From a virus, in the IMG/VR virus record IMGVR_UViG_3300032431_000018, positions 1 through 42,355 of that record: DNA of 42,355 nt; one strand, 5' to 3'. Made by a program: the position numbers and the translations under genes. The notes beneath the pieces are model-generated. The model was not told the origin of the DNA. It searched no databases and was given only the letters and a program-made list of their open reading frames with translations. Shown here in pieces: positions 3,113 through 42,143 of this stretch. How positions within the stretch are numbered: the first letter of the stretch is position 1; each line of letters begins with the position of its first letter.

Positions 3113-3115
3113 TAA

Positions 3116-6058: not shown

Positions 6059-6333
6059 GAATGCAATCTTATTGTGACTCTATTACGCTTCCACTGTTCG
6101 CTCCAATAAATGGAACTTACAGAATTATTCGCATAGATAGGCCTGCAAGAATTGTTAACGCCCAACGCGAGGCTAATTTACAGATTTCTTTTAAAAACAT
6201 TTATTCAGAAAGCGAAACTATGACATTTCAAGTGTTAAAGCCCGATGGCGAGCCGCTAACTGATATTGATGGAAATGATTGCTTTCGTATAAAAATAATT
6301 CCTTTTCAAGATGTTACTGAAAACCTTTTTTAA
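6028..6333 (+). CDS. Putative virion protein, beta-rich
   Basis: 101 residues from the ATG at 6028 (MACCSSIKQLGMQSYCDSI), overlapping the membrane protein gene by 31 bp. A second possible start is the ATG at 6061, which would leave a 2-bp gap. I prefer 6028 because a Cys-rich opening followed by CDSI and API.GTY is a form seen at the N-termini of Bacteroidota phage virion proteins. The body is alternating beta strands (YRIIRIDRPARIV, TMTFQVLKPDGEPL). Role unknown; it lies between the head and tail-chaperone genes. Confidence 0.55.
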   Translation: MACCSSIKQLGMQSYCDSITLPLFAPINGTYRIIRIDRPARIVNAQREANLQISFKNIYSESETMTFQVLKPDGEPLTDIDGNDCFRIKIIPFQDVTENLF

Positions 6334-6895: not shown

Positions 6896-7008
6896 CTATG
6901 GAAGTTGCAACCACTATTTCAGTTTCTGTTGATGAATTGGAAGTGATGCCATACTATAAAGTTATTGAGCAATATCAATTTGCCATTTCAAAATTAAAAA
7001 CTAAATGA
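6745..7008 (+). CDS. Tail assembly chaperone, -1 frame extension (lambda T-like)
   Basis: About 87 residues in the -1 frame, reached by slippage at 6739-6745 and ending in a TGA that overlaps the tape measure start (ATGA). An ATG at 6748 exists but need not be used. The segment has a long helical C-terminus (SVDELEVMPYYKVIEQYQF) of the type found in T-domain extensions, which recruit tail tube protein to the tape measure complex. I treat it as the C-terminal half of the fusion rather than as a separate gene. Confidence 0.78.
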   Translation, partial: NMGIQKGAQFYDSTERYYPELFSKPTKQKSNTEAFGGGDIVKFIKARNKIAMEVATTISVSVDELEVMPYYKVIEQYQFAISKLKTK

Positions 7009-11239: not shown

Positions 11240-12066
11240 TTAAACCAATAAAAGGACAAAGTGTATCGTTATTAACATCCACCGATGTTGAGTTTAACGA
11301 AAAGAACGAAGCATGTACCTTCGATAATGAAACTTATTGTCAAAATATATATAAAAATCAGTTTACACAGTTTCAGGTGCAATTAACGCCAACAACTGGC
11401 ATAGATTTAACAACCAATGGAAACTTTGCTAATAATATAAATTCATGGACTTTAGTTGGTGATATAATCGGTGTACATTCTCTTTTGTATGGTGGTAGCG
11501 CAAGTTTGATTGCAGACACTTCAGGCAGTCTAAGGCAAACAATAAACGGTCTAACTATAGGCTCACATTATTACGTTGAAACCACTGTTAGAGATTTTAA
11601 CAGGGTCAACCCATCTTTAATATGCAATGCAAGCCTATTTGTTGATGCTATTGGTCTTGTTGGCGATGGCATTCTATTTTATAATAGCACTGCTAATATC
11701 AGCATTCGAGACATGAAGATTAAAGTGTGGTTTACAGCAACCGCCACAACTCATAATATTAGCGTGTTGTTAACTAACTCTTCTGTTGTAGTTGAATATG
11801 TAAAGATGTACGAGCTTAGTAGACCACAGGCACAACTTACTGAATGCGATGGCGGGGCTGTATTAGATGCTAGTGTTCTATTATATAAAGATAAAGCAAT
11901 TATAACAGTTAATTGGGATAACCCTGCGGTTATAGTTGATAATTGCTATAGGATTTGCGTAACTCAAATTGGCAATGAAAGCCCTAATTTGCTTATAGAT
12001 TTTAATGCTTTTGGTGATAATTTCGGCTTTATTATTTTCGATAATAACCGTGTTCCGATGGGTTAA
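11236..12066 (+). CDS. Tail protein with carbohydrate-binding-like domain
   Basis: 276 residues, overlapping the tail-tip gene by 4 bp. Residues about 55-195 look like a galactose-binding-type or CBM jelly roll: NGNFANNINSWTLVG, then GGSASLIADTSGSLRQTI, NGLTIGSHYYVETTVRD and a closing VVVEYVKMYEL strand. The N-terminal 50 and C-terminal 80 residues are beta-rich with several cysteines. A role in binding host surface glycans at the tail tip is the natural inference. It is the last gene of the tail block. Confidence 0.65.
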   Translation: MIKPIKGQSVSLLTSTDVEFNEKNEACTFDNETYCQNIYKNQFTQFQVQLTPTTGIDLTTNGNFANNINSWTLVGDIIGVHSLLYGGSASLIADTSGSLRQTINGLTIGSHYYVETTVRDFNRVNPSLICNASLFVDAIGLVGDGILFYNSTANISIRDMKIKVWFTATATTHNISVLLTNSSVVVEYVKMYELSRPQAQLTECDGGAVLDASVLLYKDKAIITVNWDNPAVIVDNCYRICVTQIGNESPNLLIDFNAFGDNFGFIIFDNNRVPMG

Positions 12067-12067
12067 T

Positions 12068-12107
12068 TTAATTTTTATACCTTTATATAATATTAACGTA
12101 AATTAGT
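12068..12107 (+). promoter_or_regulatory. Candidate late promoter region before the glycosyltransferase gene
   Basis: This 41-bp AT-rich gap contains TACCTTTATA (12078-12087), a decamer that recurs exactly in the terminase leader (39971-39980) at a similar distance from the start codon. Surrounding bases are also alike (TTAATTTA upstream, TTA downstream). It separates the tail block from the glycosyltransferase/capsid block, a sensible place for a new transcript. The motif does not match the early TAnnTTTG promoters. Confidence 0.4.
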
Positions 12108-12812
12108 ATGAACATATACATTCTGATTCCTGTTTACAAAAGGGCTGAAATCTTTGAAAAGGTTTTGATTCGACTTAATGAAATACGGGAACTTTCAAAG
12201 CTGAAGATTGGTATTGTTGTGGCAGGCGAAAAAGAAGATGCGTGTTACGAAGTATTTAATTCTCATAAAAAAGAACATGATGTGTTTATAACGCACAAAA
12301 ACTTACCAGTATCGAATAAATTCAACGGATTGTTTAAATATTTAGAAGATAAGGAATTCGACTATGCAATGATAGTCGGCAGTGATGACTTGATTTCTAA
12401 TAAAGCATGGAAACTTTTAGAGAAAGAAATAGTAAAATATGAAACCCATTTTATAGGGTTTAAAGATTTGAATTTTTACGATACTAAAACAAAAAGAGTA
12501 GGCTACTTTATTTGTAAAAAGTCTTCATACAATCAAACCATTGGCTGCTTTAGGACATTACATTATAACCTTATTAAAGCATTGAATTTTGAGCCATACT
12601 ACAATGGCAAAGATAGTGGTATTGATTTCAGTATGGAGGAAAAAATTAAATATATAAATGGCGTTACACAAAAAGAAATTACAGTCGGCAACACAGGCGA
12701 GATTGTAGACCTTAAAAGCAATGTGAACATAAATAGTTATGAATATCTAAAAAAAATATTTACCTTAGCATCATTGGATTCATTTCCAAACGAAATAAAA
12801 CAAATTTTATAA
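12108..12812 (+). CDS. GT-A-type glycosyltransferase (family 2-like)
   Basis: 234 residues. The N-terminus MNIYILIPVYKRAEIFEKVL is the first beta strand and nucleotide-binding helix of a family-2-like glycosyltransferase. LPVSNKFNGLFKY is followed by DYAMIVGSDDLIS, where the SDD at residues 92-94 sits in the place of the metal-binding DxD motif. The enzyme would transfer a sugar from a nucleotide-sugar donor. It lies between tail and capsid genes on the late strand, so modification of a virion protein is plausible; modification of a host surface glycan is the alternative. Target and donor are not deducible. Confidence 0.75.
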   Translation: MNIYILIPVYKRAEIFEKVLIRLNEIRELSKLKIGIVVAGEKEDACYEVFNSHKKEHDVFITHKNLPVSNKFNGLFKYLEDKEFDYAMIVGSDDLISNKAWKLLEKEIVKYETHFIGFKDLNFYDTKTKRVGYFICKKSSYNQTIGCFRTLHYNLIKALNFEPYYNGKDSGIDFSMEEKIKYINGVTQKEITVGNTGEIVDLKSNVNINSYEYLKKIFTLASLDSFPNEIKQIL

Positions 12813-12813
12813 T

Positions 12814-13128
12814 ATGGAAGTTATAGTAGTATTTGAAGGCAAAGAGATAACCAACCTAAGTAAATTAGGTGCGGAAGCTTTCGTAAAGCAAAACAAGGGT
12901 GCGCATATAAAAGGCGTTGAAACCGTTGCACCAGTAGTTAAAAAAAAAGAAACTGCTGCGGGTGATGTAGATGAGCCTTACAAAAGGGAACGAACTCAAA
13001 AAGAAAAGCCTGTTGCTGAACTTGCAGAGCCTGTAGAACCTATAGAGCCTGTAGAAGTGCAAAAAAAACAAGAAGCTGTTGAGGACGAAATAGATACCCA
13101 TTACGGCAGGAAAAGAAGTAAAAAGTAA
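12814..13128 (+). CDS. Small charged protein upstream of scaffold, paralogue of the 2287 gene
   Basis: 104 residues. The N-terminal 40 residues include AFVKQNKGAHIKGVETVAPV, which matches the pattern of the 60-residue protein at 2287. The rest is low-complexity, rich in Glu, Pro and Lys (AELAEPVEPIEPVEVQ), and is probably disordered. It lies 2 bp after the glycosyltransferase gene and 17 bp before the scaffold gene, so it should be co-expressed with capsid assembly genes. Function unknown. Confidence 0.6.
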   Translation: MEVIVVFEGKEITNLSKLGAEAFVKQNKGAHIKGVETVAPVVKKKETAAGDVDEPYKRERTQKEKPVAELAEPVEPIEPVEVQKKQEAVEDEIDTHYGRKRSKK

Positions 13129-13144
13129 CACATAAAAACACAAT

Positions 13145-13948
13145 ATGAAAGAGAAAGAAAAAGAAATATTAGACAAATTATTTGGTGCGGAATTTCAAGA
13201 AAGATTAGATGCTACCGAAGACCTCGATGTCCTTATAGAAGAGCTTAAAAGCATTGAAAGGCAAAGGCATTATGCAATATTTGAAAATGATGTTCCCGAT
13301 TCTGTAAAAAATAAAATCATTCAGTCTTTCGAGGGCAAATTCAACGGAACGTTAGACACTAACCTTAAAAAACAAGGCTTGTCTCCTGATGAAATTAAAG
13401 GCAAATCAATTGCTGAAAAGCTAGCTTTGTTAGCGGAAAAATATGATGAAAAAATCAAAACGGCATCGACTAAAGGTGTTGCGGAAATTCAAGAAGAATT
13501 AATGAACTTAAATAAAAAAATTGATGAGTACGATAACGTCCTTATTCCATCAATTAAAGAAAATGCTTATAAAGAATCTGTTAATTTCAAAATAAACAAC
13601 ATATTAACGGCAGAATACGGCAATATTGATTCTGCTATTTTGTCAATTGGCAAAGAAGGGCGTGAGACCGCATTCAAAATGATTGACTTTTATCTTAGAG
13701 ACAATTATGATGTGAGACTTGAAAACAATAAAGTTGAATTTTTCCAAAAAGGCACTGATACAAAAGTGATGAATCAAAGTAAAAGCGAAATATTACCAAT
13801 TAATAAAGTTATATTAGCAGCTATTCAGACAATTGGTTTGTTACGTCAATCAAACGGCAGTGGTACACCAATTACACCAATAAATACTGATACAAACAAT
13901 AAAATAACTGGGCAAAGTAACGAAAAGTTACTAAGCCGTTTAGCATAA
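13145..13948 (+). CDS. Capsid scaffold protein (probable)
   Basis: 267 residues, highly charged and mainly helical, with coiled-coil stretches at about 1-45 and 95-140 (EIQEELMNLNKKIDEYDNVL). It stands directly before the major capsid gene, which is the standard place for a scaffold. The C-terminal 30 residues are Ser/Thr/Asn-rich and end in KLLSRLA, a short basic helix of the type that docks to capsid subunits. No protease motif is visible, so it would be removed by exit or by another protease. Confidence 0.65.
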   Translation: MKEKEKEILDKLFGAEFQERLDATEDLDVLIEELKSIERQRHYAIFENDVPDSVKNKIIQSFEGKFNGTLDTNLKKQGLSPDEIKGKSIAEKLALLAEKYDEKIKTASTKGVAEIQEELMNLNKKIDEYDNVLIPSIKENAYKESVNFKINNILTAEYGNIDSAILSIGKEGRETAFKMIDFYLRDNYDVRLENNKVEFFQKGTDTKVMNQSKSEILPINKVILAAIQTIGLLRQSNGSGTPITPINTDTNNKITGQSNEKLLSRLA

Positions 13949-13961
13949 ATTTTTTTACTTC

Positions 13962-14011
13962 GGTGCGGCAACACCTTAAAATGCCCTTCAGGTCTTGCTA
14001 TTACCTTTTAA
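13962..14011 (+). ncRNA. Structured 5' leader of the capsid gene: two hairpins with complementary loops
   Basis: Hairpin 1 is GGTG (13962-13965) with CACC (13972-13975), loop CGGCAA. Hairpin 2 is AGGT (13990-13993) with ACCT (14003-14006), extended by TTAAA (13976-13980) with TTTAA (14007-14011) across an asymmetric bulge. GCAA in loop 1 (13968-13971) is complementary to TTGC in loop 2 (13995-13998), allowing a kissing-loop contact; a flanking G-T pair extends it on this strand. AGGT could also pair with ACCT at 13973-13976, so two alternative folds exist. Confidence 0.5.
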
Positions 14012-14012
14012 G

Positions 14013-14059
14013 TTGGCAAAATTTATTATGTAATTTTCTAACTTAAAAAATCAAAAATT
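14013..14059 (+). promoter_or_regulatory. Candidate late promoter and A-rich leader of the capsid gene
   Basis: TTGGCA (14013-14018) and TAACTTA (14039-14045) flank an AATTTATTA-containing spacer. The same two words in the same order occur before the terminase genes (39956 and 39979), with a spacer three bases shorter there. The leader up to the ATG at 14060 is A-rich and has no Shine-Dalgarno. This would give the capsid gene its own transcript start, but the different spacing lowers confidence. Confidence 0.35.
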
Positions 14060-15181
14060 ATGACTTCAGCAAGTTCATGTTGTAACGTTGTTGTTCGTGC
14101 TTTAAGCGAACAAAACACAAATCTGCCCACGTTTAAGATTCAGAACCCAGGAACGTTAGCATCGCTATTGTTACCCGATAATATGTCGGGAATAAGAATG
14201 GTAGAGGTGACAGATAACACTGGTAGAACAATTATAAACCGAGCTAAATACTTTAGAAATCCACGAGACGTAGTAAACGATGGATGGTCTAATTTCTGCA
14301 CGCCTGGGGCTACTTCAGGGCAAGATTTCAAAGACTTTCCTGCCGACATTACAAAATCGGTGAAGTTAACTTTGGACGAAGCAGAATTTAGAGATTTCTG
14401 TGGCATACCATCAGACGGTAATGCTTCCGACATTTCTCTCACCGCCTTTGGCTTAGAACAGACTAGAGCAAAAGCTAACCAATTACTTAAAGCTGTATCA
14501 AATGCCTTTGCAGTGCAATTAGCTGCTAATGTTGGTAAATTTCAAGATGGCTCAATAGTGAAAAATGCTAATCTTTTAAAAACCGATGGTTCGGTAAATG
14601 CCAACGGAGAAGTGCTAGTAAAACGCTCATTTGAAAACATTGAGCTACCGACAGATGATATTATCGCAGTTGGTTCAGGTAATTTATCCGAATACTTTTA
14701 CAAAAGACAATATGCTTGTTGTTCAGAAGCAGGGATTGATGTGTCTAAGGTAACATCTCCTTTCAGGTATTTTAGAGATACTGCTATTGATAGCGTGATG
14801 GCAGGTGATAACAACTTTATAACCTTCGCTCCAGGGTCTGCTGTGCCGTTTTTCAGAAGATGGTTTATTGGTCCGTATGAAAAGAACGGAAGCGATGGGA
14901 CTAACATTAGAAAAATAGTAATTGATTTACCGTTTTTATTTAATGGAATTTCCGCTACAATTCCTGTAAATTTCACAGTGAAATATATAGAATGCGGAAG
15001 CACTGACGAAGATGCTTCACCTGAAAACGGTCCCGATTCTAAATGGGTTTTAACTTGGACAATTAACGCTGGTTTGGCAACAATTCCATCGAACATTGAA
15101 ATTTCAGGTTCACCATTTCAAGGTGTTAATAACATATTACATTTCATTGCTACTTGCGGAAATTCTGCATATTGTAGCTAA
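14060..15181 (+). CDS. Major capsid protein (probable)
   Basis: 373 residues, a normal length for an HK97-fold capsid protein, preceded by a scaffold-like gene and followed by connector-like genes. The N-terminal segment has SSCCNVVVRALSEQNTN, and a long amphipathic helix region (about 125-165) is followed by beta-rich C-terminal domains, compatible with an N-arm, spine helix and P/A domains. Its leader is the longest in the late block and carries predicted structure, which fits an abundantly made protein. Sequence alone does not prove the fold. Confidence 0.7.
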   Translation: MTSASSCCNVVVRALSEQNTNLPTFKIQNPGTLASLLLPDNMSGIRMVEVTDNTGRTIINRAKYFRNPRDVVNDGWSNFCTPGATSGQDFKDFPADITKSVKLTLDEAEFRDFCGIPSDGNASDISLTAFGLEQTRAKANQLLKAVSNAFAVQLAANVGKFQDGSIVKNANLLKTDGSVNANGEVLVKRSFENIELPTDDIIAVGSGNLSEYFYKRQYACCSEAGIDVSKVTSPFRYFRDTAIDSVMAGDNNFITFAPGSAVPFFRRWFIGPYEKNGSDGTNIRKIVIDLPFLFNGISATIPVNFTVKYIECGSTDEDASPENGPDSKWVLTWTINAGLATIPSNIEISGSPFQGVNNILHFIATCGNSAYCS

Positions 15182-15197
15182 ACAAAAGGAATAAAAG

Positions 15198-16091
15198 ATG
15201 TGTCTTTCTTCTCTTGTGGGTATAAGGGCTTCGTGCGCAAGCACGGGCTCTTATACTTTTTTTATTGATGACACTCCTGGCATTAACCTAAAGAATGCAG
15301 CAGCGGTGGCTGACACCACTGGTATAGCATTATTAAATAAATCCATTTTAAACGGGGCAAATCAAGTTCAGGCTGAAATCAATGAAGAATTGATTGGACG
15401 ATTCAGGCTTAATGAAAAAATAAAACCTTTTTCATTAGGGAACTTTACAACTGATTATATGTCTGTTTCGAGGTCGGGTTTTAACATTGAAAAGATTTGT
15501 AATTCTTGCAGGCTTGCAAGTTTATTCATTTCAAGTGTTGAGTTTCAAACCAAAGAAGATTTTGCAGGTAAAGTAGTTATAAAAGTTGGTAATGAGATTA
15601 CTGAATATACAGTAACTTCAAATGCTAAAATAAAATCTTATGTTACCATTGATAGATTAGTTAACAGCAACGAATTTGAGATTTATTTAGAACAAGAAGA
15701 TGGGCTGTTGTTCGAATTATTGAAAACGAACGCTTCGTGCTTGTCCGGTGAATATAATCTTACATTAATCGGTAACGGTTTAATAAAACTAAATGGGTAC
15801 TGGCAGTGCGATATTGAAAAAATCTTTTGTGAATTTAAGACGTTATTTGGCAGGGCTGTTTTGTTAAGCAGTGGTGCTTTCTTTTTTGAAGAAGTTGCCA
15901 TGACAGACCGTGTAAATTATTACACCGTATATAAATCACCAGATGATGCTATTGAACAAAAGCACATTTTAAATTCTCGCTATCAAAAGCAAATAAAAGT
16001 AGTAATTACCAAATTATACCCTTTATTAAAAAAGTTTGGAGGCTGCTGTATCGATTGCACGGGTAGCGGATGGGCTTACCAATTACCATGA
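15198..16091 (+). CDS. Putative head-tail connector / neck protein
   Basis: 297 residues, directly after the capsid gene. The start MCLSSLVGIRASC followed by an IDDTPGINLKNAA segment is a form I associate with neck or virion proteins of Bacteroidota phages. Cysteines are unusually frequent (C2, a CNSC pair in the middle, CCIDC near the end). The gene order capsid, this gene, HK97 gp10-like gene, tail-terminator-like domain fits an adaptor or stopper role. It overlaps the next gene by 4 bp. Confidence 0.6.
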   Translation: MCLSSLVGIRASCASTGSYTFFIDDTPGINLKNAAAVADTTGIALLNKSILNGANQVQAEINEELIGRFRLNEKIKPFSLGNFTTDYMSVSRSGFNIEKICNSCRLASLFISSVEFQTKEDFAGKVVIKVGNEITEYTVTSNAKIKSYVTIDRLVNSNEFEIYLEQEDGLLFELLKTNASCLSGEYNLTLIGNGLIKLNGYWQCDIEKIFCEFKTLFGRAVLLSSGAFFFEEVAMTDRVNYYTVYKSPDDAIEQKHILNSRYQKQIKVVITKLYPLLKKFGGCCIDCTGSGWAYQLP

Positions 16092-16555
16092 TTGATTTAA
16101 ACATTGTTGCTAATAATTTCGCTGAAATAACAAAGCGACTTTTCCCGATGTGGAGCGATATTGTGTTAAATAATGCAGGCGCAGAAATTAGGCGTAGAAT
16201 TTTTAATGAAGGTGGGGCAACGGACGGCAAAATAGGCTCTTATAAGTCTAAAACCAAACTCATAAGAGAGCAACTAGGATTACAGACCGCCTATGTAGAT
16301 TTAGAATCAACAGGCACGTTAAGAAGAAGTATTCAAGTAGGCATCAGTGAAAATGACAAAGTGTTAGGTATTGCAGAAATCAATTATGAAAACAACTTTT
16401 CTACCGATAAAAACGCAAACGTTCAAGAAAAGAATTTTAAAAAAGAGATTTTTACAATCAGTGAAAAAGAAATTGAAATCGCTTTTAAAGGAGCAGACGA
16501 ATGGCTCGACAAACAATTAGATATTGAATTAGAAAAAATGTTCAAGAATGCTTGA
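16088..16555 (+). CDS. HK97 gp10-like neck / tail completion protein
   Basis: 155 residues from the ATG at 16088 (MIDLNIVANN), which forms an ATGA junction with the preceding stop; the frame is open 18 bp further upstream (MGLPIT) but the junction start is more economical. The central segment with RRRIFNEGGATDGKIGSYKS and a later STGTLRRSIQVG resembles gp10-family neck proteins, which join head and tail. It overlaps the next gene by 8 bp. Confidence 0.65.
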   Translation: MIDLNIVANNFAEITKRLFPMWSDIVLNNAGAEIRRRIFNEGGATDGKIGSYKSKTKLIREQLGLQTAYVDLESTGTLRRSIQVGISENDKVLGIAEINYENNFSTDKNANVQEKNFKKEIFTISEKEIEIAFKGADEWLDKQLDIELEKMFKNA

Positions 16556-18635
16556 CAAAGTTCAAAGAGAGTTATTAAATTTTGTAGATAGGGGCTACTT
16601 TGGTTTAGGATTCAGCGGTGTTCGTTTGAGTGGTGGGAAGCTAATAGCATATAACGAAGATGGGAGTGTGGGCGATTTTACAGGCATTCAGGACAATAAT
16701 AGTAATTACGTTTATATAAGAGTTTTGACTGACGGTCAAGCAACTAACGAATCAATAAGCACTTGCGGGAGTAAGGTAATGCAAGCGAATTTAAGGCTAG
16801 TTGCGATTGCATGGGATACTAATATTTATCTTTTAAGTGGATTTTTAGCAAGCAGAATCGTAAATTTTAAAAAGTATAGGGTCAAAATAAACAGTACGAA
16901 TTTAGATTACGATAGCATCTGGAATGCTGAAATGATAAATACAGATGCCAAAAGGTACAATGGCATGAGTGTTGTATCGGTTGATATTTCAGTAAAGTAC
17001 AATCTTGATAATAAATTTTACGATAGCCCTTGCGCTTTGGATTTATGCGAAGATGTAAAAGTATGTAAAGACGGTTTTGTAATATTGAAAGATGAAGATG
17101 GTAATATAATTTTAGAGCAGGTTGTGCCAAGCGGTGTAACGGTAGAAAAAACAGTTAATTTACAATGCTTAGATGCAGATGCAGTGCTAAAAGATACGGC
17201 AGGGGGTGTAATTAGCGTTACCGATATACCAAGCGGTGCAACCCAAGACATCATTGCACCCGATGCCGAAGCGATATTAAAGGATACATTAGGAACTGTT
17301 ATTAGTGTTAATAATATTGTTAGTGGCGGAAGTGAAGATATTATAGCACCCGATGCCGAAGCAGTAATAAAAAACACTTTAGGGATTGTTATTAGCACAA
17401 ATAATATTCCTAGTGGAGCAAGCGAAGATATTATTATTCTCGATTCACAAGCAACTTTAAAAGATACGGCAGGTAATATTATAAGTGTTAATAATATTGT
17501 TAGTCAAGCAAGTGTTGATATTATTGCGCCCAATGGAACTATAAATTTAGTAAATACCGTTAACACGCCTATAGCTTCATTAAATGTAAGAAGTGGCGAA
17601 ATAAAGCCATCTGTTATTGCTAATGTGGCTTGGACTGATAGCGATGGCAGCGGTGAATCTACACCTTATGGCAATGCTATTAATTGCACACCTATAACGC
17701 CTTTATTCGTAGATTTTTCTGCTTCAAAAACGAACCCTGTAACCCACGAAAGTATAACTTTTACCGATTTATCAACAGGCGCAACGAATTGGCTATGGAA
17801 TTTTGGCGATGGAACAACATCAACTTTACAAAATCCTGCTAAAATTTATTTTTATGCAGGCGCATACACTGTAACCTTAGCAGCTTCTAACCCAGTGGCA
17901 GGAGGCTTTGAAACTAAGGTTGCATTTATAAATGTAACATTGCAAAGTATTGTTGCAACCAACCTACAGGCTCATTATAGGGCATTAGAAGGCGTTGCCC
18001 CCTCTAACGCAACACTTGTGCTTGGTGATGTGAGCCAATGGAATGACAGCACTGCAAACGCATTTCACGTTACGCAAGGCACTGCTGCTAACAGACCTAT
18101 TTATTCAATTAACGAAATTACAGCACCTAACGGAAGCATCTATGGTGGTGCAATATTCGATGGTATAAACGACTTTTTAGCCAATGCTTCGGCAGGCTTT
18201 GTAAGGTCTCCAAATAGCACAATGTTTTTGTTGTTTAAAATATCAGCCTTGGCAACTTCAGGAACTAGGGGCTTATTTACCACCGTGGGACTTCAGGCTG
18301 TTTTATATAATTTTGGAAATCCACAAATAAGGATGCAAAGCGGGGCAATAATTGATACAGGAATGGCTTATCCATTAAATAATTACTTTGTATTAAGGGT
18401 GCAATTTTCTAACAGCGGTAACGCTCAAATAAGAATGAATAGCCTTATAACTAGGGCTGTGGCTAATACTGGTGCAGTCTCAACAAGCGGCTTCGCTATT
18501 GGAGGCAATAACGCAGGTTCAGCACAATCTTCTATAACATTTATAGAAGGGGCAATTTATAGCGCAAACCCAACTTCAGGCGATGTGACCAATATATTAG
18601 AATATTTTAAATCAAAATTTGGGCTATGGGTATAG
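16548..18635 (+). CDS. Tail-terminator-like domain fused to repeats, a PKD domain and a LamG-like lectin domain
   Basis: 695 residues in four parts. (1) Residues 1-165 (MLDKVQRELLNFVDRGY start, SVVSVDISVKYNL end) look like a compact tail-completion domain in the position of a tail terminator. (2) Residues 209-358 are five 30-residue repeats with the core VLKDTAGGVISV and PSGA; a sixth, divergent copy precedes them at about 176-207. (3) Residues about 386-465 form a PKD-type Ig-like domain (FTDLSTGATNWLWNFGDGTT). (4) Residues about 471-695 resemble a LamG/concanavalin-like lectin domain (YGGAIFDGINDFL). Such domains bind glycans, so a virion-displayed adhesin is likely. Confidence 0.72.
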   Translation: MLDKVQRELLNFVDRGYFGLGFSGVRLSGGKLIAYNEDGSVGDFTGIQDNNSNYVYIRVLTDGQATNESISTCGSKVMQANLRLVAIAWDTNIYLLSGFLASRIVNFKKYRVKINSTNLDYDSIWNAEMINTDAKRYNGMSVVSVDISVKYNLDNKFYDSPCALDLCEDVKVCKDGFVILKDEDGNIILEQVVPSGVTVEKTVNLQCLDADAVLKDTAGGVISVTDIPSGATQDIIAPDAEAILKDTLGTVISVNNIVSGGSEDIIAPDAEAVIKNTLGIVISTNNIPSGASEDIIILDSQATLKDTAGNIISVNNIVSQASVDIIAPNGTINLVNTVNTPIASLNVRSGEIKPSVIANVAWTDSDGSGESTPYGNAINCTPITPLFVDFSASKTNPVTHESITFTDLSTGATNWLWNFGDGTTSTLQNPAKIYFYAGAYTVTLAASNPVAGGFETKVAFINVTLQSIVATNLQAHYRALEGVAPSNATLVLGDVSQWNDSTANAFHVTQGTAANRPIYSINEITAPNGSIYGGAIFDGINDFLANASAGFVRSPNSTMFLLFKISALATSGTRGLFTTVGLQAVLYNFGNPQIRMQSGAIIDTGMAYPLNNYFVLRVQFSNSGNAQIRMNSLITRAVANTGAVSTSGFAIGGNNAGSAQSSITFIEGAIYSANPTSGDVTNILEYFKSKFGLWV
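17172..17621 (+). repeat. Five 90-bp in-frame tandem repeats in the adhesin-like gene
   Basis: Each unit encodes 30 residues of the form D.(D/E)A.(L)K(D/N)T.G.(V/I)IS..(N/D)I.SG...(D)IIAP. Units start at 17172, 17262, 17352, 17442 and 17532; the last is the most divergent. The strict 90-bp period with diverged third positions points to an old expansion kept in frame. Repeats like this usually act as a stalk that extends a binding domain. Confidence 0.8.
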
Positions 18636-18835
18636 ACTTAACAGAAAGCGAATTTGAAGCTATAAACGATAGAGTAACGCAAGCGTTTAAAGCCGATGGT
18701 ATTGACGGTTATGTTTATGCCACAAAAAGTAATGTAACAACAAAGGGCTATTGGATGCAAATTGTGCCTGGTTATGAAAAATATTTTAGCACACAAGAGT
18801 TAGAAGCTGCCATAGATTATGAACAAATTATTTAG
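18626..18835 (+). CDS. Small conserved-looking protein, unknown function
   Basis: 69 residues, overlapping the adhesin-like gene by 10 bp and the holin-like gene by 17 bp, so it is translated within the late operon. The sequence (DLTESEFEAINDRVTQAF start, FSTQELEAAIDYEQII end) is acidic with two helices flanking a beta region. No signal or membrane segment. I do not recognise the family. Confidence 0.6.
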   Translation: MGIDLTESEFEAINDRVTQAFKADGIDGYVYATKSNVTTKGYWMQIVPGYEKYFSTQELEAAIDYEQII

Positions 18836-28927: not shown

Positions 28928-29584
28928 TTATAGCTTTTTATTGTAAGGCATGATATTTCCTGAATTATTTTTTTCGTTTACAGGTTTCATTGCCATTAAC
29001 CAATTTCTAAAGTGTGGCAGCCAATCCTCATATTTTTCATGGAATTTGAGACTAGTAACTAGGCTCATTCTAAATAACTTAGGTTCAGTGATTAATACTT
29101 TCCTTCTTATTGAAACGTTAATTGCTTCTAGTTGGGCTACGCTTTCATTGTTGGTTAAATCAAATAAACGCCTACCATGTTCTGAATGTATAGCTTGCTT
29201 ATCTTCAAAGGTGTAATCGCTAATGTATTTTTGTTTTCTATTGTTTTCAGGTTTTACTTCAAAGGTTTCATTTTCTAATTTACCTATCAATATGCTTAAT
29301 ATTTTTGTTTCATTTATTCTTAAATATGGATGCTGGGGAACTCCAGTTATTGTAAAGTCTAAAATATTTGCATCTTGCAAACTTTTTATTGCTTTTTTAA
29401 TATTTTCAGTTTTTAGAGTTGTTTCTTTCTCTATAATTTCATAATCGCAAAAAAACCAATTACTTTCTTGTTTTTTATCAATCAAACAAGATATTAATAT
29501 GGCTGCTTCGATGCCGACTTTTAAAGCAAGATTCTTATTTACATTTATGTAACAGTGTTGCCCTAAAATGTCATTAAGATTCAT
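28928..29584 (-). CDS. Probable replication initiator / helicase loader
   Basis: 218 residues immediately upstream of dnaB, the position of O/DnaD-type initiators in many phages. The N-terminal half has a winged-helix look (ETTLKTENIKKAIKSLQDAN, then a wing with VPQHPYLRIN), which is how initiator proteins bind origins. The C-terminal half is helical and basic and may contact the helicase. I infer function from context and fold pattern; there is no diagnostic motif. Confidence 0.6.
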   Translation of the reverse strand: MNLNDILGQHCYINVNKNLALKVGIEAAILISCLIDKKQESNWFFCDYEIIEKETTLKTENIKKAIKSLQDANILDFTITGVPQHPYLRINETKILSILIGKLENETFEVKPENNRKQKYISDYTFEDKQAIHSEHGRRLFDLTNNESVAQLEAINVSIRRKVLITEPKLFRMSLVTSLKFHEKYEDWLPHFRNWLMAMKPVNEKNNSGNIMPYNKKL

Positions 29585-29604
29585 GTATTAATATAATAAG
29601 GTGT

Positions 29605-29653
29605 TAAATTATATGGCAGTGGAAGTTACTTCAATAATCAGTGAAGATTATTG
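29605..29653 (-). promoter_or_regulatory. Promoter with two overlapping inverted repeats before the initiator gene
   Basis: Minus strand: TTG (29632-29634), 18-bp spacer, TATAATTT -7-like box. The spacer holds the perfect palindrome GAAGTTACTTC (29622-29632). Next to it is the inverted repeat CAATAATC (29632-29639) / GATTATTG (29646-29653) with a 6-nt loop. The promoter lacks the extended early motif, so it may be separately controlled by a repressor, or this may be part of the origin. Confidence 0.5.
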
Positions 29654-29715
29654 TTATAGAATATTAGTCAAAAGGCTACTAAAAACGATTGTTATGTATT
29701 ACTTAATAAACCTGT

Positions 29716-29940
29716 CTACGTCTGTAAGTAAGTAAAATCCCAAACTTTACTTGTATCATCCATTGAATTTAAGCATTGATGAAAGGTTTCTATTGACATT
29801 GGCACTATTAAGTAATCTTTATGAGTGCTACCGAAACAAAAACTAGTTTGATATTTAGTAATTGAATAAAAGTAATATACTTTTGCAAGATTAATGATAA
29901 CTTCTTTGCCGTCTACGTCTTTAACTTTGATAAATTTCAT
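29716..29940 (-). CDS. Small hypothetical protein
   Basis: 74 residues, mainly beta (KFIKVKDVDGKEVIINLAKV) with an aromatic-rich centre (YYFYSITKYQTSFCFG). Function unknown. It is the last gene of the operon that starts near 31507. The next 131 bp contain the initiator promoter and operator-like repeats. Confidence 0.6.
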   Translation of the reverse strand: MKFIKVKDVDGKEVIINLAKVYYFYSITKYQTSFCFGSTHKDYLIVPMSIETFHQCLNSMDDTSKVWDFTYLQT

Positions 29941-29988
29941 AATTTTAGTTTTAATTATTTTGTTATTAATAGTTTAGGATAATTAGTA

Positions 29989-30282
29989 TTAACGGTGTTT
30001 GTTAGCCAATTCAGACAATAAATCATCAGCTAATTCAACCGCCCCAGTAACAAGCCTTTTTTTATAGTCATCCCAATCATCAGGAGTAATTGTTTTGCCC
30101 CAATCAGGGTTAGATGCTAAGCCTTGCATTGCCATTGATGCAAAGTATTCACGTTTTGTAAGACCTCCAAATTTTACTTCATACCCTGTATTTTCACCAT
30201 CTTTTGAAGGTTGATAATCATTATCACCTTCACCAAATCTTGTCCAAGTTGAAGGATTTATTGGTTGTTTTGAATTATCCAT
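29989..30282 (-). CDS. Conserved phage protein (GLTKREYFA family)
   Basis: 97 residues. GLTKREYFASMAMQGLASNP is a sequence I recognise from a small protein widespread in phages of several phyla, usually among early genes. The N-terminal 40 residues are polar and probably flexible; the C-terminus is helical (DLLSELANKHR). Function unknown. Confidence 0.7.
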   Translation of the reverse strand: MDNSKQPINPSTWTRFGEGDNDYQPSKDGENTGYEVKFGGLTKREYFASMAMQGLASNPDWGKTITPDDWDDYKKRLVTGAVELADDLLSELANKHR

Positions 30283-30315
30283 TTTATTTATTTTTTTAAT
30301 TAAACTTAAATTTAT

Positions 30316-30615
30316 CTAATATTTATACAAATTATTAACTTTACGAACTTGGCATTTAGAACAATATGAAATTGAATTTACATTATCAGTGTGTGAATAT
30401 GCCCAATTGTGTTCACAGCCCTTTGTAAAATCAGCTAAATTGCCCAAAGCTAAATTCTTTTCAACTTTCTTTAAGTCGCTTATTATTTCTAAAATAATAT
30501 TCATTTGGGCTTTATAATTTTCCCTCAATTCTTTATCAGTGCTGCCTATTATAAAGTAAATTAAAATAGTGGAATATTTTTCTTCATACTTTTTAATCAA
30601 TAGTTCGATAGTCAT
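30316..30615 (-). CDS. Small protein with C-terminal zinc-knuckle-like pattern
   Basis: 99 residues. The helical N-terminal two thirds are followed by a Cys/His pattern (GCEHNWAYSH, then SYCSKCQVRK), i.e. C-x-H and CxxC spaced about 17 residues apart, consistent with one bound zinc. No family recognised. Confidence 0.6.
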   Translation of the reverse strand: MTIELLIKKYEEKYSTILIYFIIGSTDKELRENYKAQMNIILEIISDLKKVEKNLALGNLADFTKGCEHNWAYSHTDNVNSISYCSKCQVRKVNNLYKY

Positions 30616-30667
30616 AATTTTAGTTTTAATTGATTAAAATAAGGCTTAATAATATTTAGCTTTAAAC

Positions 30668-31036
30668 TTACAATTGCCTGTAATCTGAAACATCTACCCA
30701 TTCACAAAACAAGCTACAAAGCCAGTCCGCTAACATTATACATTGTTGAGTATAGGTGTAATTTTGGATTTTCTTTACTTCATCTAAATTTATATGTGCT
30801 TTATTCCATAAAACACCAAAATCAATAGAATCAATATAAATTTTGGAGCCAGGGATTCCGCTAAAGCAGTTTAATTCAAATCCAGCTTTATTATCTCCAA
30901 TGTATAATTCAACACCATCTCCATCACTACACCACCATTGACTAGTCCATAATTGGCAACCGCTTAGTTCATTTCGCAAAGTCCAAACCCTGCTGCTAAC
31001 ACTGTATTGCTTTAGGTTTAATGTTTCGTTTGTCAT
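30668..31036 (-). CDS. Hypothetical early protein
   Basis: 122 residues from the ATG at 31036 (MTNETLNLKQYSVSSRVW). The frame is open to 31105, but that would overlap the neighbouring gene and adds an unlikely basic stretch, so the inner start is preferred. The protein is rich in Trp and Cys (CQLWTSQWWCSDGDGVELY). No motif recognised. Confidence 0.6.
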   Translation of the reverse strand: MTNETLNLKQYSVSSRVWTLRNELSGCQLWTSQWWCSDGDGVELYIGDNKAGFELNCFSGIPGSKIYIDSIDFGVLWNKAHINLDEVKKIQNYTYTQQCIMLADWLCSLFCEWVDVSDYRQL

Positions 31037-31091
31037 AATTTTTATTTGATTTGTTATTGAAAGTTTCGTGTGCCTATAAGTTATAAGCCAT

Positions 31092-31334
31092 TTAGGGGAG
31101 CACATCGTATTTTAGGCTAAACCAAATAACCGATACAGGTTGAGGGACAGCTGTATCAATTGTCATAAATCTAATACCCTCGGAATGAGCTTCTATTAAC
31201 TGGTCATTTTCCAGTTCAATATACTTATTAATATTTGATATAACTATTCCGTTTATTGTATTGAAGGTAACTTCAACTTCTTTTTTTTGAATTGCTTCAA
31301 TAAATAGACTTAGTGCTGTTTGTTTCTTTTTCAT
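31092..31334 (-). CDS. Small hypothetical protein
   Basis: 80 residues, starting MKKKQTALSLFIEAIQKKEV. A helix followed by a beta-rich region. It follows the 54-residue gene by 8 bp. Function unknown. Confidence 0.6.
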   Translation of the reverse strand: MKKKQTALSLFIEAIQKKEVEVTFNTINGIVISNINKYIELENDQLIEAHSEGIRFMTIDTAVPQPVSVIWFSLKYDVLP

Positions 31335-31342
31335 ACTCTTTT

Positions 31343-31507
31343 TTAATTTTCATTTTGAACGCCTATTAATGTTGCAATAGCAGCTTTAACTAGCCAGTTG
31401 TAAGCATCATCATTACTTTCAAATGCAATCATTATTTTTTGAATTTCAACGTTGTTTTTCATTTCGTTTACTCTTTCTGTTATTGAAGTAATCATTTGCT
31501 GTGTCAT
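31343..31507 (-). CDS. Small hypothetical protein (54 aa), first gene of its operon
   Basis: 54 residues, helical: MTQQMITSITERVNEMKNNV and a second helix (NWLVKAAIATLIGVQ). It begins 20 bp after an early promoter, with the same layout as the 22451 and 27399 genes, which supports it. Function unknown. Confidence 0.65.
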   Translation of the reverse strand: MTQQMITSITERVNEMKNNVEIQKIMIAFESNDDAYNWLVKAAIATLIGVQNEN

Positions 31508-31527
31508 GTTTTTCGTTTTTGTTAATG

Positions 31528-31570
31528 CAAATGTACAACTTTAATTTGCATTTGCACTACATTTTCAAAA
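31528..31570 (-). promoter_or_regulatory. Early promoter, extended type (drives 31507 to 29716)
   Basis: Minus strand: TTTTGAAAATGTAGTGCAAAT, truncated here to the core GAAAATGTAGTGCAAAT, GTG at the -33 place (31555-31557), 19-bp spacer, -7 box TACATTTG (31528-31535). Best match to the consensus in the set. Confidence 0.75.
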
Positions 31571-31598
31571 TAAAATGAAAACTTCGTTTTAGTAAATG

Positions 31599-32027
31599 TT
31601 ATAAGTCATTAAAAATACACGTTTGACCAAGGTGTTTACAATTAAAAACTGTTTGTTTTCTGTGTTTTTTATCATAATTATTGTGGCACTTTTGACACAT
31701 TGCTTTTAAATTTTCGTTTTGACAATTTTCTGGAATATGGTCTAAATGAGAAACTGTCAATACAACTAATTTTAATTGATAAATGCCGTTCCATTGGTTT
31801 AAGTTCTGTTTTAATTCAACAGCTGCATTGTAATCAGAAAAGCCCATTGGATGGTTGTATGGTGGCTCATGCTCAACAATAGTTTTATTTTCGTGGTAAT
31901 GTATTAAGGAGTAGTTTTTTACGCCACACACTTCACATTTATTTTTTGCTCTTTCAAATCTTATCCGTTCTGAAATTAGCTTCCAGTCTTTTGGGTAACG
32001 CTTTATATTTTCTTTTTTTATTGGCAT
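31599..32027 (-). CDS. HNH endonuclease
   Basis: 142 residues. The core is complete: KCEVC (C31, C34), TVSHLDHIPENC with the catalytic-type histidines H94 and H97, NLKAMCQKCHNNYD with N106 and C111/C114, H115. MPIKKENIKRYPKDW is the usual start of this phage HNH family. The enzyme cuts DNA with a single metal ion. Free-standing phage HNH proteins may be homing nucleases or help packaging. It stands far from the terminase, and directly downstream of a structured non-coding element, so homing is the more likely role. Confidence 0.85.
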   Translation of the reverse strand: MPIKKENIKRYPKDWKLISERIRFERAKNKCEVCGVKNYSLIHYHENKTIVEHEPPYNHPMGFSDYNAAVELKQNLNQWNGIYQLKLVVLTVSHLDHIPENCQNENLKAMCQKCHNNYDKKHRKQTVFNCKHLGQTCIFNDL

Positions 32028-32083
32028 AATATTAAATAAATTAACATCTTACAGAAGCACATAAAATGATTAGTAACAAAATA

Positions 32084-32187
32084 TATAAACGCAAGTGGGC
32101 GTGGTCTGCTATGAACATAGGCAATGCACATTTGCTTTCTGTTGCTCCCATCTTATAGCTGTGCTATTTACCACACCTGCGCTTATA
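32084..32187 (-). ncRNA. Branched structured RNA candidate upstream of the HNH gene
   Basis: Read on the minus strand, the ends close with an 18-bp stem: TATAAGCGCA plus GGTGTGGT pairs with ACCACGCC, a 4-nt bulge, then TGCGTTTATA. Inside are three hairpins: ATAGC-ACA-GCTAT, GCAA-(7 nt)-TTGC and CTAT-GTTC-ATAG. Two of the stem pairs are G-U on this strand and would be A-C on the other, which points to a minus-strand RNA, the sense of the flanking genes. It lies between the 58-residue gene and the HNH gene. No known RNA class is recognised. Confidence 0.6.
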
Positions 32188-32202
32188 CTCATTGTGCTTT
32201 TA

Positions 32203-32379
32203 TTACACTATTGCTATTACAGTTCTCTTTACGCCATCATTTTTTGCAGAATATCCAACTTCTTTTTTATCAAAATTGAAACCAAATGATTTACCTGTTT
32301 TCCAAATAGTAGCAAATTCCATTTTGTTTGCTGATTTGATTTTTTTTGCATCTGCGATTGCTTCGTTTAAAGTTATCAT
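32203..32379 (-). CDS. Small hypothetical protein (58 aa)
   Basis: 58 residues from the ATG at 32379 (MITLNEAIADAKKIKSANKM, ending VKRTVIAIV). The open frame runs further upstream to 32526 but that part crosses a promoter and is not coding. The promoter-to-start distance is longer than for other early genes (about 40 bp). A helix then a beta hairpin. Function unknown. Confidence 0.65.
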   Translation of the reverse strand: MITLNEAIADAKKIKSANKMEFATIWKTGKSFGFNFDKKEVGYSAKNDGVKRTVIAIV

Positions 32380-32418
32380 TTTGTTTGTTTTTAGGATAGC
32401 TTCATTGCTACCATAATT

Positions 32419-32466
32419 CAAAAGTACAAACTTACTTCCACATTTGCAATACATTTTCAAAATAAA
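32419..32466 (-). promoter_or_regulatory. Early promoter, extended type (drives 32379 and the HNH gene)
   Basis: Minus strand: TTTTGAAAATGTATTGCAAA, TTG (32447-32449), 20-bp spacer, -7 box TACTTTTG (32419-32426). The only operon in the set that contains a non-coding structured element. Confidence 0.75.
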
Positions 32467-32477
32467 ATGAAAATTAA

Positions 32478-32912
32478 TTAATAGTCTACTCTTTTTAAGA
32501 CCCATGAGCCTGTTAATGATTGACATTCATAGTATCTAGTCCCTTTTGTTTTAAAAGGCTTTCTATCGGCATGTATGAAGCCGTTATTAGGGTAATAGCA
32601 TACTCTAGTATAGAACTTATCTTTTATCAATTCATTCAATAGCTTTTCGTTATAAATTAAATCTACTGCGCCTCTATCTAATAAGTTGTAGGTAGTATGT
32701 TCTGAATCACCTAAACGCTTTTTTGAAAGTTCATAAGCCAAAGGTCTATGCCCCGACTTTTTAGACACGCTTACTTTAGCTTTTATGGATTCAGACACTA
32801 TGTTCAAGTAATCTTTATGCTTGACTATATTTTCTTTTTCCATTATGGTTAATGGAATATTAGGCGCAATTATAAAGTCTTCGTTTGTAAGGTTTCCAAA
32901 TTGCTTTTTCAT
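32478..32912 (-). CDS. M15-type peptidase, probable endolysin
   Basis: 144 residues. Zinc-peptidase M15 features: SGHRPLAYEL (R56), SEHTTYNLLDRGAVDL with H72 and D84, and NNGFIHADRKP with H114. These match the SxHxxGxAxD and H of D,D-/L,D-carboxypeptidases and phage endolysins that cut the peptide of peptidoglycan. The spacing between H72 and the GAVD is longer than usual, so the exact ligands should be checked. No signal peptide, so it would need a holin. It lies on the early strand, far from the holin-like genes. Confidence 0.7.
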   Translation of the reverse strand: MKKQFGNLTNEDFIIAPNIPLTIMEKENIVKHKDYLNIVSESIKAKVSVSKKSGHRPLAYELSKKRLGDSEHTTYNLLDRGAVDLIYNEKLLNELIKDKFYTRVCYYPNNGFIHADRKPFKTKGTRYYECQSLTGSWVLKRVDY

Positions 32913-32942
32913 GGTATTTATTTGTTTTAAATTCTTAAATAC

Positions 32943-33149
32943 TCATTCATTGTTAAACCATCCCAACATCCCTATGCTAACTAAAATATCATTAATTTTT
33001 TGTAAAGTTTCGGCATCATTATCTCTATAAAGATGCCACCTTTCCATTGCGTTTTCTATTTCGCTAATTGCCGATTTCAAAGAATCGCAATCAACAGGTT
33101 TATTAATTATCGGTTTTCTAAAACCAAATAAGCGTTTTAGTAATTTCAT
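32943..33149 (-). CDS. Small hypothetical protein
   Basis: 68 residues, starting with a basic stretch (MKLLKRLFGFRKPI) that could touch membranes, then helical (ISEIENAMERWHLYRDNDAE). It is 30 bp upstream of the peptidase gene and 1 bp after the next gene's stop. A small lysis-linked factor is possible but unproven. Confidence 0.55.
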   Translation of the reverse strand: MKLLKRLFGFRKPIINKPVDCDSLKSAISEIENAMERWHLYRDNDAETLQKINDILVSIGMLGWFNNE

Positions 33150-33150
33150 A

Positions 33151-33441
33151 TTATTTAATGTTGTTTAAATCGTAAGCGTTTAAAATTGAATCTTTGTCTA
33201 CTTCTGAAATCATAATCTTTTGCCTTACAATTTTAGATTTTACACCTATTTTGTAATCTCTTGAATGTTGATACACGTTAGCCTTTTCGCTAATAACTTT
33301 AGCTTGTTCTATGCAATGGAGTTTAGCCCAGCCTATTAAAACATCTATGTTTTGTTCTAAAGAATGTTCATTTTCTTCGCTTGATACATTGTCTTTAAAT
33401 GGTATCAAAATATCTAATATTGCCTCTGCTGTTGGTATCAT
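33151..33441 (-). CDS. Hypothetical early protein
   Basis: 96 residues, acidic then basic, helical throughout (ILDILIPFKDNVSSEENEHS; VISEKANVYQHSRDYKIG). No motif recognised. Confidence 0.6.
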   Translation of the reverse strand: MIPTAEAILDILIPFKDNVSSEENEHSLEQNIDVLIGWAKLHCIEQAKVISEKANVYQHSRDYKIGVKSKIVRQKIMISEVDKDSILNAYDLNNIK

Positions 33442-33481
33442 AATTTTGTTTTTTAAGTATTTTTAAATAATAATAGAATTT

Positions 33482-33754
33482 CTATAACCAGCCTTTGTTA
33501 TGTGCCTTTCTATCGGCATTTTTCAAATCCCTTGACCACAGGCTGTTTTTGCCGTAGACAAATTCTTTAAGACCATTGGCTTTATGTCGTTTTATTTCAT
33601 GTTGTGCTAATCTTAATTTTTTAAATTCATTTGTTTCTGTTTTTATTGGTCTAAAATTCTTATCTAATGGCTCGTCCCAATTATCTCCATAAGCCATATT
33701 TGCCATACCTGCCATCATTCCTATTAATCCTAAATACCCTTTACCGTAAATCAT
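33482..33754 (-). CDS. Small hypothetical protein with hydrophobic N-terminus
   Basis: 90 residues. A glycine/methionine-rich start (MIYGKGYLGLIGMMAGMANM) may insert in or touch a membrane. The rest is charged and helical (EFKKLRLAQHEIKRHKANG). No family recognised. Confidence 0.6.
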   Translation of the reverse strand: MIYGKGYLGLIGMMAGMANMAYGDNWDEPLDKNFRPIKTETNEFKKLRLAQHEIKRHKANGLKEFVYGKNSLWSRDLKNADRKAHNKGWL

Positions 33755-36357: not shown

Positions 36358-36360
36358 TAA

Positions 36361-36856
36361 CACTATTTCAAAAACTTTATGTAGTTTTACAAAATAACAA
36401 AATTGGTTTTTGCCTTTAAGCCATAATTAAAGCAGCAGGGATGTTGCATAAGGCATCGGAGTAGTGGGCGGGCTGAATACTGTAACAACTACTTTTAAAG
36501 CGTTATTAGAGGACTTTGCGAAGCGCAGCGGTGGTGCGAAAGTTACGAGCCGTAAGACAAAGATGCAAGTAGAATTATTGCAGACAGTGGGTAACGAATA
36601 ATGGAGTATCTACGCTACCATTTACACAAAAAACAATTGGTATTATATGCCTTTAGGTTTTTAAAGTGTAGCAACCAACTACCGAATTTTTGGTAGGGGG
36701 TGTGCTATCCTCAAACGCTAGTGTCTTAACTCATAAAGCAACTACAAAAAGATGGCGGTGGTGGATTTGACATATTGAAATAGTAGTAATACGCGCGACG
36801 TAAAACCATAAATTAAAATAAATCAATTTATAACGTAAAATTTAAAAAAAAATACT
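36361..36856 (+). ncRNA. 496-bp gene-free stretch with a GC-richer island, candidate long structured RNA
   Basis: No ORF of useful size exists here. The part 36411-36780 is clearly GC-richer than the genome. Pairings read on the plus strand: TGCCTT (36411-36416) with AAGGCA (36450-36455), enclosing GCAGCA-GGGA-TGTTGC (36432-36447); AGTAGT with ACTACT (36460-36493); CGTTATT (36501-36507) with AATAATG (36597-36603), enclosing TGCAA/TTGCA and TTACG/CGTAA hairpins; a long hairpin TAGCA...TGCTA (36669-36707) containing CTACCG/TGGTAG. The last 60 bp are the AT-rich ssb leader. No known RNA class recognised; a replication origin is the alternative. Confidence 0.5.
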
Positions 36857-37593: not shown

Positions 37594-38094
37594 TTAACCA
37601 TAGTACTTGTAAATACATAAGCCTCTAGGTTTAGGCGTTAACATTTCGTTTACTTTATCAATTATTGCTTGACCAATTATTTCACGGCAAATGTTAGCCG
37701 TTACTAGCTGATTTTCTTTATAAATATGACCAGCCTCAACATTGTTATAAGAAGCAAGTATTGCAGCAAAAAAAACGGAAGCAGAATGAGATTGATAAAG
37801 TTCTAAAGTTTCATCTGAAATTTGTAAAGTTTCATCTGAAATTTTAGGTTTTAATCTTTTTCTTTTTTGTGTTTTAATATAAGGTAAATGATTTTCATTA
37901 AACATTTCTTCAGAACACATTTCTTTAGGTAAGGTTAATGGTTTTATATTGATATTTAATTTTTTTGCAATTAATAAAAGCCAATCGCCTCTATAAATAG
38001 TCTCTACCACTTGTTCTATGGTCTTATCACCTACCCACTCGCTAAGCTCTTTGCCATATTCTAAATCAATCAGTAATTCTTTTAAGTTTTCCAT
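37594..38094 (-). CDS. Conserved phage protein (family with a terminal ICREII segment)
   Basis: 166 residues. The pattern WLLLIAKKLNIN at the start, an alanine-rich helix (SASVFFAAILASYNNVEAGH) and VTANICREIIGQAII at the end match a family common in Bacteroidota and other phages, where the middle is often Ala/Tyr-rich. Here the middle carries a 7-residue tandem duplication, ISDETLQ-ISDETLE. Function unknown. Confidence 0.65.
   Translation of the reverse strand: MENLKELLIDLEYGKELSEWVGDKTIEQVVETIYRGDWLLLIAKKLNINIKPLTLPKEMCSEEMFNENHLPYIKTQKRKRLKPKISDETLQISDETLELYQSHSASVFFAAILASYNNVEAGHIYKENQLVTANICREIIGQAIIDKVNEMLTPKPRGLCIYKYYG
37805..37844 (-). repeat. Short in-frame tandem duplication (21-bp period)
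   Basis: AAAGTTTCATCTGAAATTT occurs twice, at 37805-37823 and 37826-37844 (plus-strand reading), giving ISDETLQ then ISDETLE in the minus-strand protein. A recent small duplication that keeps the frame. Confidence 0.75.
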
Positions 38095-41801: not shown

Positions 41802-42059
41802 ATGAAACAAGAAATAACGTTAGAACAATACCTAAGATTAGGAGGTAAATTGGAAAGAGTAAATTGGCATGATGCCTTTTGTGATTATGGCGACCACAAT
41901 AGAGGTGCAAAAGTAGTGTCTTATGAAGATAAAGGTGAAAAGGGTGGGCATAATACACCGCTATTTCATTTTACTTTTGACAATGGTAAAACTCATAGAT
42001 ACGCTATCGGTTGGATAAAAATAAAGGTTGATTTTGTGTTGTCTGAAACTTACCGATAA
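41802..42059 (+). CDS. Hypothetical protein under an early-type promoter
   Basis: 85 residues, beta-rich with many His/Asp (WHDAFCDYGDHNRGA) and a closing YAIGWIKIKVDF strand. It is on the late strand, immediately after the terminase gene, but has the early-type promoter 29 bp upstream, so it may be expressed early, as an inserted morons-like unit. Function unknown. Confidence 0.6.
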   Translation: MKQEITLEQYLRLGGKLERVNWHDAFCDYGDHNRGAKVVSYEDKGEKGGHNTPLFHFTFDNGKTHRYAIGWIKIKVDFVLSETYR

Positions 42060-42143
42060 CATATCTATACCCGAAAGTTTCCTATCTTTAAATGGATTCT
42101 AATCAGTTCTAAACTAAAATTATTCACAATAAAACTAAATAGT

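What the first reader, a model, noticed from the sequence alone, without database searches (positions are those of the whole stretch)
32084..32187. New branched RNA closed by an 18-bp stem, upstream of an HNH nuclease gene
Seen: a long closing stem and three internal hairpins, in a tRNA-like cross arrangement. Two non-canonical pairs are G-U on the minus strand but A-C on the plus strand, so the structure is kept for the minus-strand RNA. The adjacent HNH gene suggests a mobile unit (RNA plus nuclease) inserted between genes, or an RNA that guides or regulates the nuclease. I considered group I and II introns, HEARO and known ribozymes and saw none of their cores.
Basis: partly seen in the sequence, partly recalled or inferred. 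Interest (0 to 1): 0.8.

Follow-up and report, generated by a model that had tools for sequence, protein, structure and literature searches.

The report
Orphan hairpin ahead of phage HNH gene
A real but unconserved folded stretch sits between two genes of a virus (probably infecting Bacteroidota), just ahead of an ordinary HNH nuclease gene; it is most likely a local control hairpin of that gene's messenger RNA rather than a new RNA-plus-nuclease mobile element.

Summary
The stem is there: 15 consecutive pairs (two G-U) at 32083-32188, plus 4 pairs beyond a 4-nt bulge, on the minus strand between a 58-aa ORF (X) and an HNH gene. It folds better than shuffles (z -3.1). However, such a stem is expected about 0.5 times in this window by chance, and ten other places fold better for their GC. 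The three-hairpin cross is 10 kcal/mol worse than the best fold. No relative was found in the phage, plasmid and IMG/VR collections, in 395 Bacteroidota genomes or in Rfam. None of 75 testable HNH homologues carries it, so a fixed RNA-plus-nuclease unit is not supported. Element and HNH appear to be read from X's promoter while the next gene has its own: the layout of T4 free-standing homing endonucleases. A cis-acting leader hairpin is the best guess. In other phages this HNH family sits in integron-type cassettes, and the window's HNH ends with the same R''-like box as its closest relative, but the stem itself fails attC tests. Side result: a covariance model of attC-like sites hits 42 of 99 Bacteroidota genomes, with integrase-like recombinases beside several arrays.

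The parts
32083..32188 (-). The folded element: closing stem arms 32174-32188 and 32083-32097, bulge 32098-32101, inner 4 pairs 32170-32173 with 32102-32105
31599..32027 (-). HNH endonuclease gene, 142 aa (phrog_1571)
32203..32379 (-). ORF X, 58 aa, no relatives found; its stop codon lies about 15 nt before the stem
32419..32449 (-). Bacteroidota-type promoter-like sequence TTG-N20-TACTTTTG upstream of X
   Evidence: consensus match only
31528..31557 (-). Promoter-like sequence GTG-N19-TACATTTG after HNH, ahead of the next small genes; adjoins the 33-nt repeat shared with X's promoter region
   Evidence: read; repeat
32023..32049 (-). Small hairpin at the HNH start codon (start is the least accessible of 27 minus-strand genes)
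31598..31609 (-). R''-like box ATGACTTATAAC overlapping the HNH stop codon; region 19 of 21 identical to that of L002
31080..31091 (-). Second exact copy of the box (ATGGCTTATAAC) directly after the 80-aa gene

Best explanation
The element is a local, cis-acting structured stretch of the X-HNH messenger RNA, in the leader of a free-standing, homing-type HNH gene. Inferred sequence of events: transcription starts at the promoter ahead of X and runs through the element into HNH; the GC-rich hairpin separates the two cistrons (a block to ribosomes or RNases coming from X, or an RNase III-type processing or stabilising stem), while a second small hairpin at the HNH start codon holds translation low. 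The next gene is spared by its own promoter. Shown: the stem, the gene order, the promoter-like sequences and the poorly accessible start codon in predicted folds. Inferred: co-transcription, processing and the effect on translation. The large element does not itself cover the start codon.
For: Minus-strand fold better than shuffles and better than the plus strand. Element lies between X and HNH with a promoter-like sequence before X and one after HNH, none in between. HNH start has the lowest predicted accessibility of 27 minus-strand genes. Precedent: T4-type free-standing HNH and GIY-YIG genes lie between genes, are read from upstream promoters, have leader hairpins (mobE, segB), and seg43(25) has a very stable hairpin that does not cover the ribosome site (PMC2988022).
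Against: No conservation or covariation could be shown. Removing the element in silico does not change start-codon accessibility. The fold is not exceptional within the window. Homing activity of this HNH protein is not shown.
Confidence: 0.42

Rival explanations
1. Chance: a neutral, slightly GC-rich intergenic stretch that happens to pair with itself and has no function.
For: About 0.5 stems of this class expected per window; 11th by GC-corrected fold energy; no relatives.
Against: z -3.06 on the minus strand; GC island exactly in an intergenic gap; 4 further pairs beyond the 15-pair run.
Confidence: 0.3
2. A decayed or strongly diverged integron-like cassette site (attC) marking the junction between an X cassette and an HNH cassette.
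For: HNH of the same family is flanked by attC-like sites or cassette-type terminal repeats in L002/L043, L107, L111, L094 and, weakly, L068. The window's HNH 3' end shares the R'' region with L002, 19 of 21. Element arms resemble L002's upstream site weakly (p 0.014 and 0.10).
Against: R1 finds no site in the window; 9.4 bits with filters off, below a chance hit of 10.6. Core boxes AAC/GTT are not both present (TATAAGC/GTTTATA). The cassette repeat for HNH is not significant (p 0.165) and whole-leader similarity to L002 is nil (p 0.44).
Confidence: 0.2
3. A new mobile unit or guide system made of this RNA and the HNH nuclease.
For: Adjacency and orientation only; the L002 HNH protein has weak similarity to the HNH part of IscB (E 0.002, far below the cut-off).
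Against: None of 75 HNH homologues carries the stem. The protein is a small HNH domain of 142 aa, matching phage HNH families and not a guided nuclease. No Rfam family reaches its gathering score and none has E below 0.1. The cross is not the favoured fold.
Confidence: 0.04

Closest known systems
Leader hairpins of T4-type free-standing homing endonuclease genes (mobE, segB, seg43(25); PMC2988022)
   Same: Small nuclease gene between two genes, apparently read from an upstream promoter, next gene with its own promoter, stable hairpin in the leader; as in seg43(25) the large hairpin does not cover the start region.
   Different: Bacteroidota-type promoters, no sequence relation, no evidence of homing or of regulation here; element is 56 nt upstream of the start.
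Integron attC sites, in particular the Bacteroidota attC-like sites collected here (model R1)
   Same: Imperfect palindrome of about 100 nt at a cassette-like gene boundary upstream of an HNH gene found as a cassette elsewhere.
   Different: Core boxes altered, stem continuous without the usual asymmetric spacer, no match to R1.
Intercistronic RNase III processing stems of phage mRNAs (from own knowledge, e.g. T7 early RNA)
   Same: Long, slightly bulged stem between cistrons of one probable mRNA.
   Different: No processing data; not conserved.

Membership tests
Leader hairpin of a free-standing homing endonuclease gene | Nuclease gene of an HNH or GIY-YIG family between other genes | tested here: met
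   phrog_1571 HNH
Leader hairpin of a free-standing homing endonuclease gene | Promoter upstream of the preceding gene and separate promoter for the following gene | tested here: inconclusive
   consensus matches only
Leader hairpin of a free-standing homing endonuclease gene | Hairpin controls translation of the nuclease gene | tested here: inconclusive
   start codon poorly accessible, but through a separate small hairpin
Leader hairpin of a free-standing homing endonuclease gene | Homing activity at the allele lacking the gene | not testable with these tools
   no empty-site relative found
integron attC site | R'' ending in AAC and R' beginning with GTT, paired | tested here: not met
   TATAAGC/GTTTATA; AAC/GTT-anchored detector finds none in 29500-33500
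integron attC site | Match to a covariance model of attC-like sites of the same phylum | tested here: not met
   positive controls
integron attC site | Neighbouring gene flanked by cassette-specific terminal inverted repeats | tested here: inconclusive
   3' box present, 5' box degenerate, p 0.165
integron attC site | Recombination by an integron integrase | not testable with these tools
   needs an assay
Known structured RNA or ribozyme, group I/II intron, HEARO, tRNA | Match to the Rfam model or ARAGORN | tested here: not met
Intrinsic terminator | GC-rich hairpin followed by a T run | tested here: not met
   none found; the stem is followed by TATTTTG

The most novel reading that the evidence does not exclude
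The stem is a heavily diverged cassette-junction site of the Bacteroidota attC-like system seen in related phages and chromosomes, with its core boxes altered by paired changes on both arms, so that an integron-like recombinase of the host could shuffle the X and HNH genes of this phage.
Probability: 0.1. Interest if true: 0.55.

Novelty: new member of a known kind. Interest (0 to 1): 0.25.

Why it matters
As a control hairpin of one phage nuclease gene it matters little. What came out around it may matter more: this HNH family recurs as an integron-type cassette in unrelated phages, and a covariance model built from Bacteroidota attC-like sites hits 42 of 99 genomes of a phylum in which IntegronFinder 2.0 reports very few integrons (PMC9024848).

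Tried and rejected
Rfam at gathering and permissive thresholds, and ARAGORN: nothing. Copies of the stem in its own genome, phages, plasmids, IMG/VR (exact 20-mer) and 395 Bacteroidota genomes: only short chance matches. Relatives of the phage by DnaB, terminase and ORF X: none close enough to show an empty site. Intrinsic terminator: none. attC-like site: tested by an AAC/GTT-anchored detector, a covariance model with positive controls, terminal-repeat statistics and alignment to the nearest relative; not supported for the stem. Sequestration of the HNH start by the large stem: in-silico removal changes nothing. MITE or REP-like repeat: no second copy. A first broad inverted-repeat scan was too permissive to be useful.

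Full report
OBSERVATION. The minus strand of 32083-32188 holds a 15-pair run (GTATAAGCGCAGGTG / CACTTGCGTTTATAT, two G-U), then a 4-nt bulge and 4 more pairs. It folds at -33.9 kcal/mol, z -3.06, 1 of 200 shuffles as good; the plus strand has z -1.72. The two G-U pairs are indeed A-C on the plus strand.

CHANCE. In Markov shuffles of the window, stems of at least 14 pairs with at least 5 G-C pairs within 110 nt appear 0.23 times per strand; two are seen in all, this being one. By GC-corrected folding energy the element ranks 11th in the window. Its GC of 0.44 does contrast with flanks of 0.23-0.28. The structure is real as a sequence property but not beyond what a 42-kb search could yield.

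SURROUNDINGS. Order on the minus strand: promoter-like TTG-N20-TACTTTTG (32449-32419), ORF X of 58 aa without relatives, the element, the HNH gene (31599-32027, phrog_1571), then a copy of a 33-nt repeat also found upstream of X and a promoter-like GTG-N19-TACATTTG ahead of two small genes. Neither the Bacteroidota-type pattern nor the sigma-70 scan shows a minus-strand promoter between X and HNH, so HNH is probably read through the element from X's promoter (inferred). The phage has a DnaB helicase, a terminase and a single-strand binding protein; a Bacteroidota host is inferred from the promoters and the nearest HNH relatives.

IS IT TIED TO HNH? Three searches gave HNH homologues in phages and genomes. 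Of 75 testable loci none has this stem; 8 have some stem of 12 or more pairs, of unrelated sequence. The stem itself has no relative in the phage and plasmid collections, in IMG/VR (exact 20-mer only) or in 395 Bacteroidota genomes, and no close relative of the phage was found. Covariation therefore cannot be tested.

INTEGRON LEAD. In the closest relative, L002/L043 (66% identical protein), HNH lies in an array of palindromic sites, each gene flanked by its own inverted repeats (HNH: GTTATAAGCC / GGCTTATAAC). L107, L111 and L094 have HNH between canonical-looking attC sites with terminal repeats (perfect 12-mers in L107 and L111), and L068 is a weaker case. I collected 23 Bacteroidota attC-like sites from viral contigs and genomes. 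They align with paired changes at 8 of 24 pairs, and model R1 was built from them. R1 recovers five sites in L002's contig, two of them flanking HNH, and three in L027. It finds nothing in the window; with filters off the element scores 9.4 bits, below a chance hit of 10.6. The window's HNH nevertheless ends with TTTTAATGACTTATAACATTT, 19 of 21 identical to L002's R'' region and extending past L002's stop codon. So the HNH gene may be a former cassette (inferred), but the stem upstream is not demonstrably an attC site. Arm-by-arm similarity to L002's upstream attC is weak (p 0.10 and 0.014) and vanishes over the whole leader (p 0.44).

MECHANISM. The arrangement resembles T4-type free-standing homing endonuclease genes: between other genes, read from an upstream promoter, with the following gene provided with its own promoter and with RNA hairpins in the leader. 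One of these, seg43(25), has a very stable hairpin that does not cover the ribosome site (PMC2988022). Here the HNH start is the least accessible of 27 minus-strand genes because of a small hairpin next to the AUG; removing the large element in silico does not change this. I therefore take the element to be an intercistronic or leader hairpin that insulates or processes the X-HNH mRNA (0.42), against chance (0.30), a diverged cassette junction (0.20) and a guide or mobile RNA (0.04).

SIDE RESULT. R1 hits 42 of 99 Bacteroidota genomes at E up to 1e-5, often as same-strand clusters. In two arrays (L288, L289) most genes between neighbouring detected sites start and end with cassette-specific inverted repeats of 9-14 nt; intervals without them may contain sites the model missed. 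Tyrosine recombinases related to the integron integrase model but below its cut-off lie beside several arrays. All 14 control genomes also ring weakly for that model, so only the position next to the arrays is informative. IntegronFinder 2.0 lists very few integrons in Bacteroidetes (PMC9024848), although a review names Bacteroidota among the phyla with integrons (PMC8618304). This deserves its own study.

Noticed in passing
L288 (sites 4069-11860 +, tyrosine recombinase 12856-14031 -), L289 (sites 2541-18772 +): Bacteroidota chromosomes carry arrays of attC-like sites (model R1; 42 of 99 genomes at E up to 1e-5) whose genes mostly have cassette-specific terminal inverted repeats; IntI-like tyrosine recombinases lie beside several arrays. 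Looks like an under-recognised integron type.
   Followed up: partly
L043/L002, L107 (L108 and L109 by similarity of match), L111, L094, L068: The phage HNH family phrog_1571 recurs as an integron-type gene cassette in unrelated phage contigs, with terminal repeats around the gene and attC-like sites beside it.
   Followed up: partly
L002 3367-3633; L027 around 3706 on the minus strand: In these arrays the next ORF starts inside the loop of the preceding attC-like site and reads through its 3' arm, so the site encodes part of the protein's N-terminus.
   Followed up: no
window 36358-36856: A 500-nt gap without a convincing gene, with GC-rich stretches and a -3.3 z fold at 36601, upstream of the single-strand binding protein gene; no Rfam match and no DNA relative in phages. 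Candidate non-coding RNA or regulatory region.
   Followed up: partly
window 31598-31609 and 31080-31091, minus strand: The 12-mer ATGRCTTATAAC occurs exactly twice in the window, both times at a gene's stop codon, and the similarity extends over 34 nt.
   Followed up: partly
window 3361-3464 (+) and 37771-37874 (+): The two best folds of the window for their GC (z -5.1 and -4.5), inside open reading frames.
   Followed up: no
window 41994-42069 (-): The only other long contiguous stem in the window (18 pairs), downstream of the large terminase gene.
   Followed up: no
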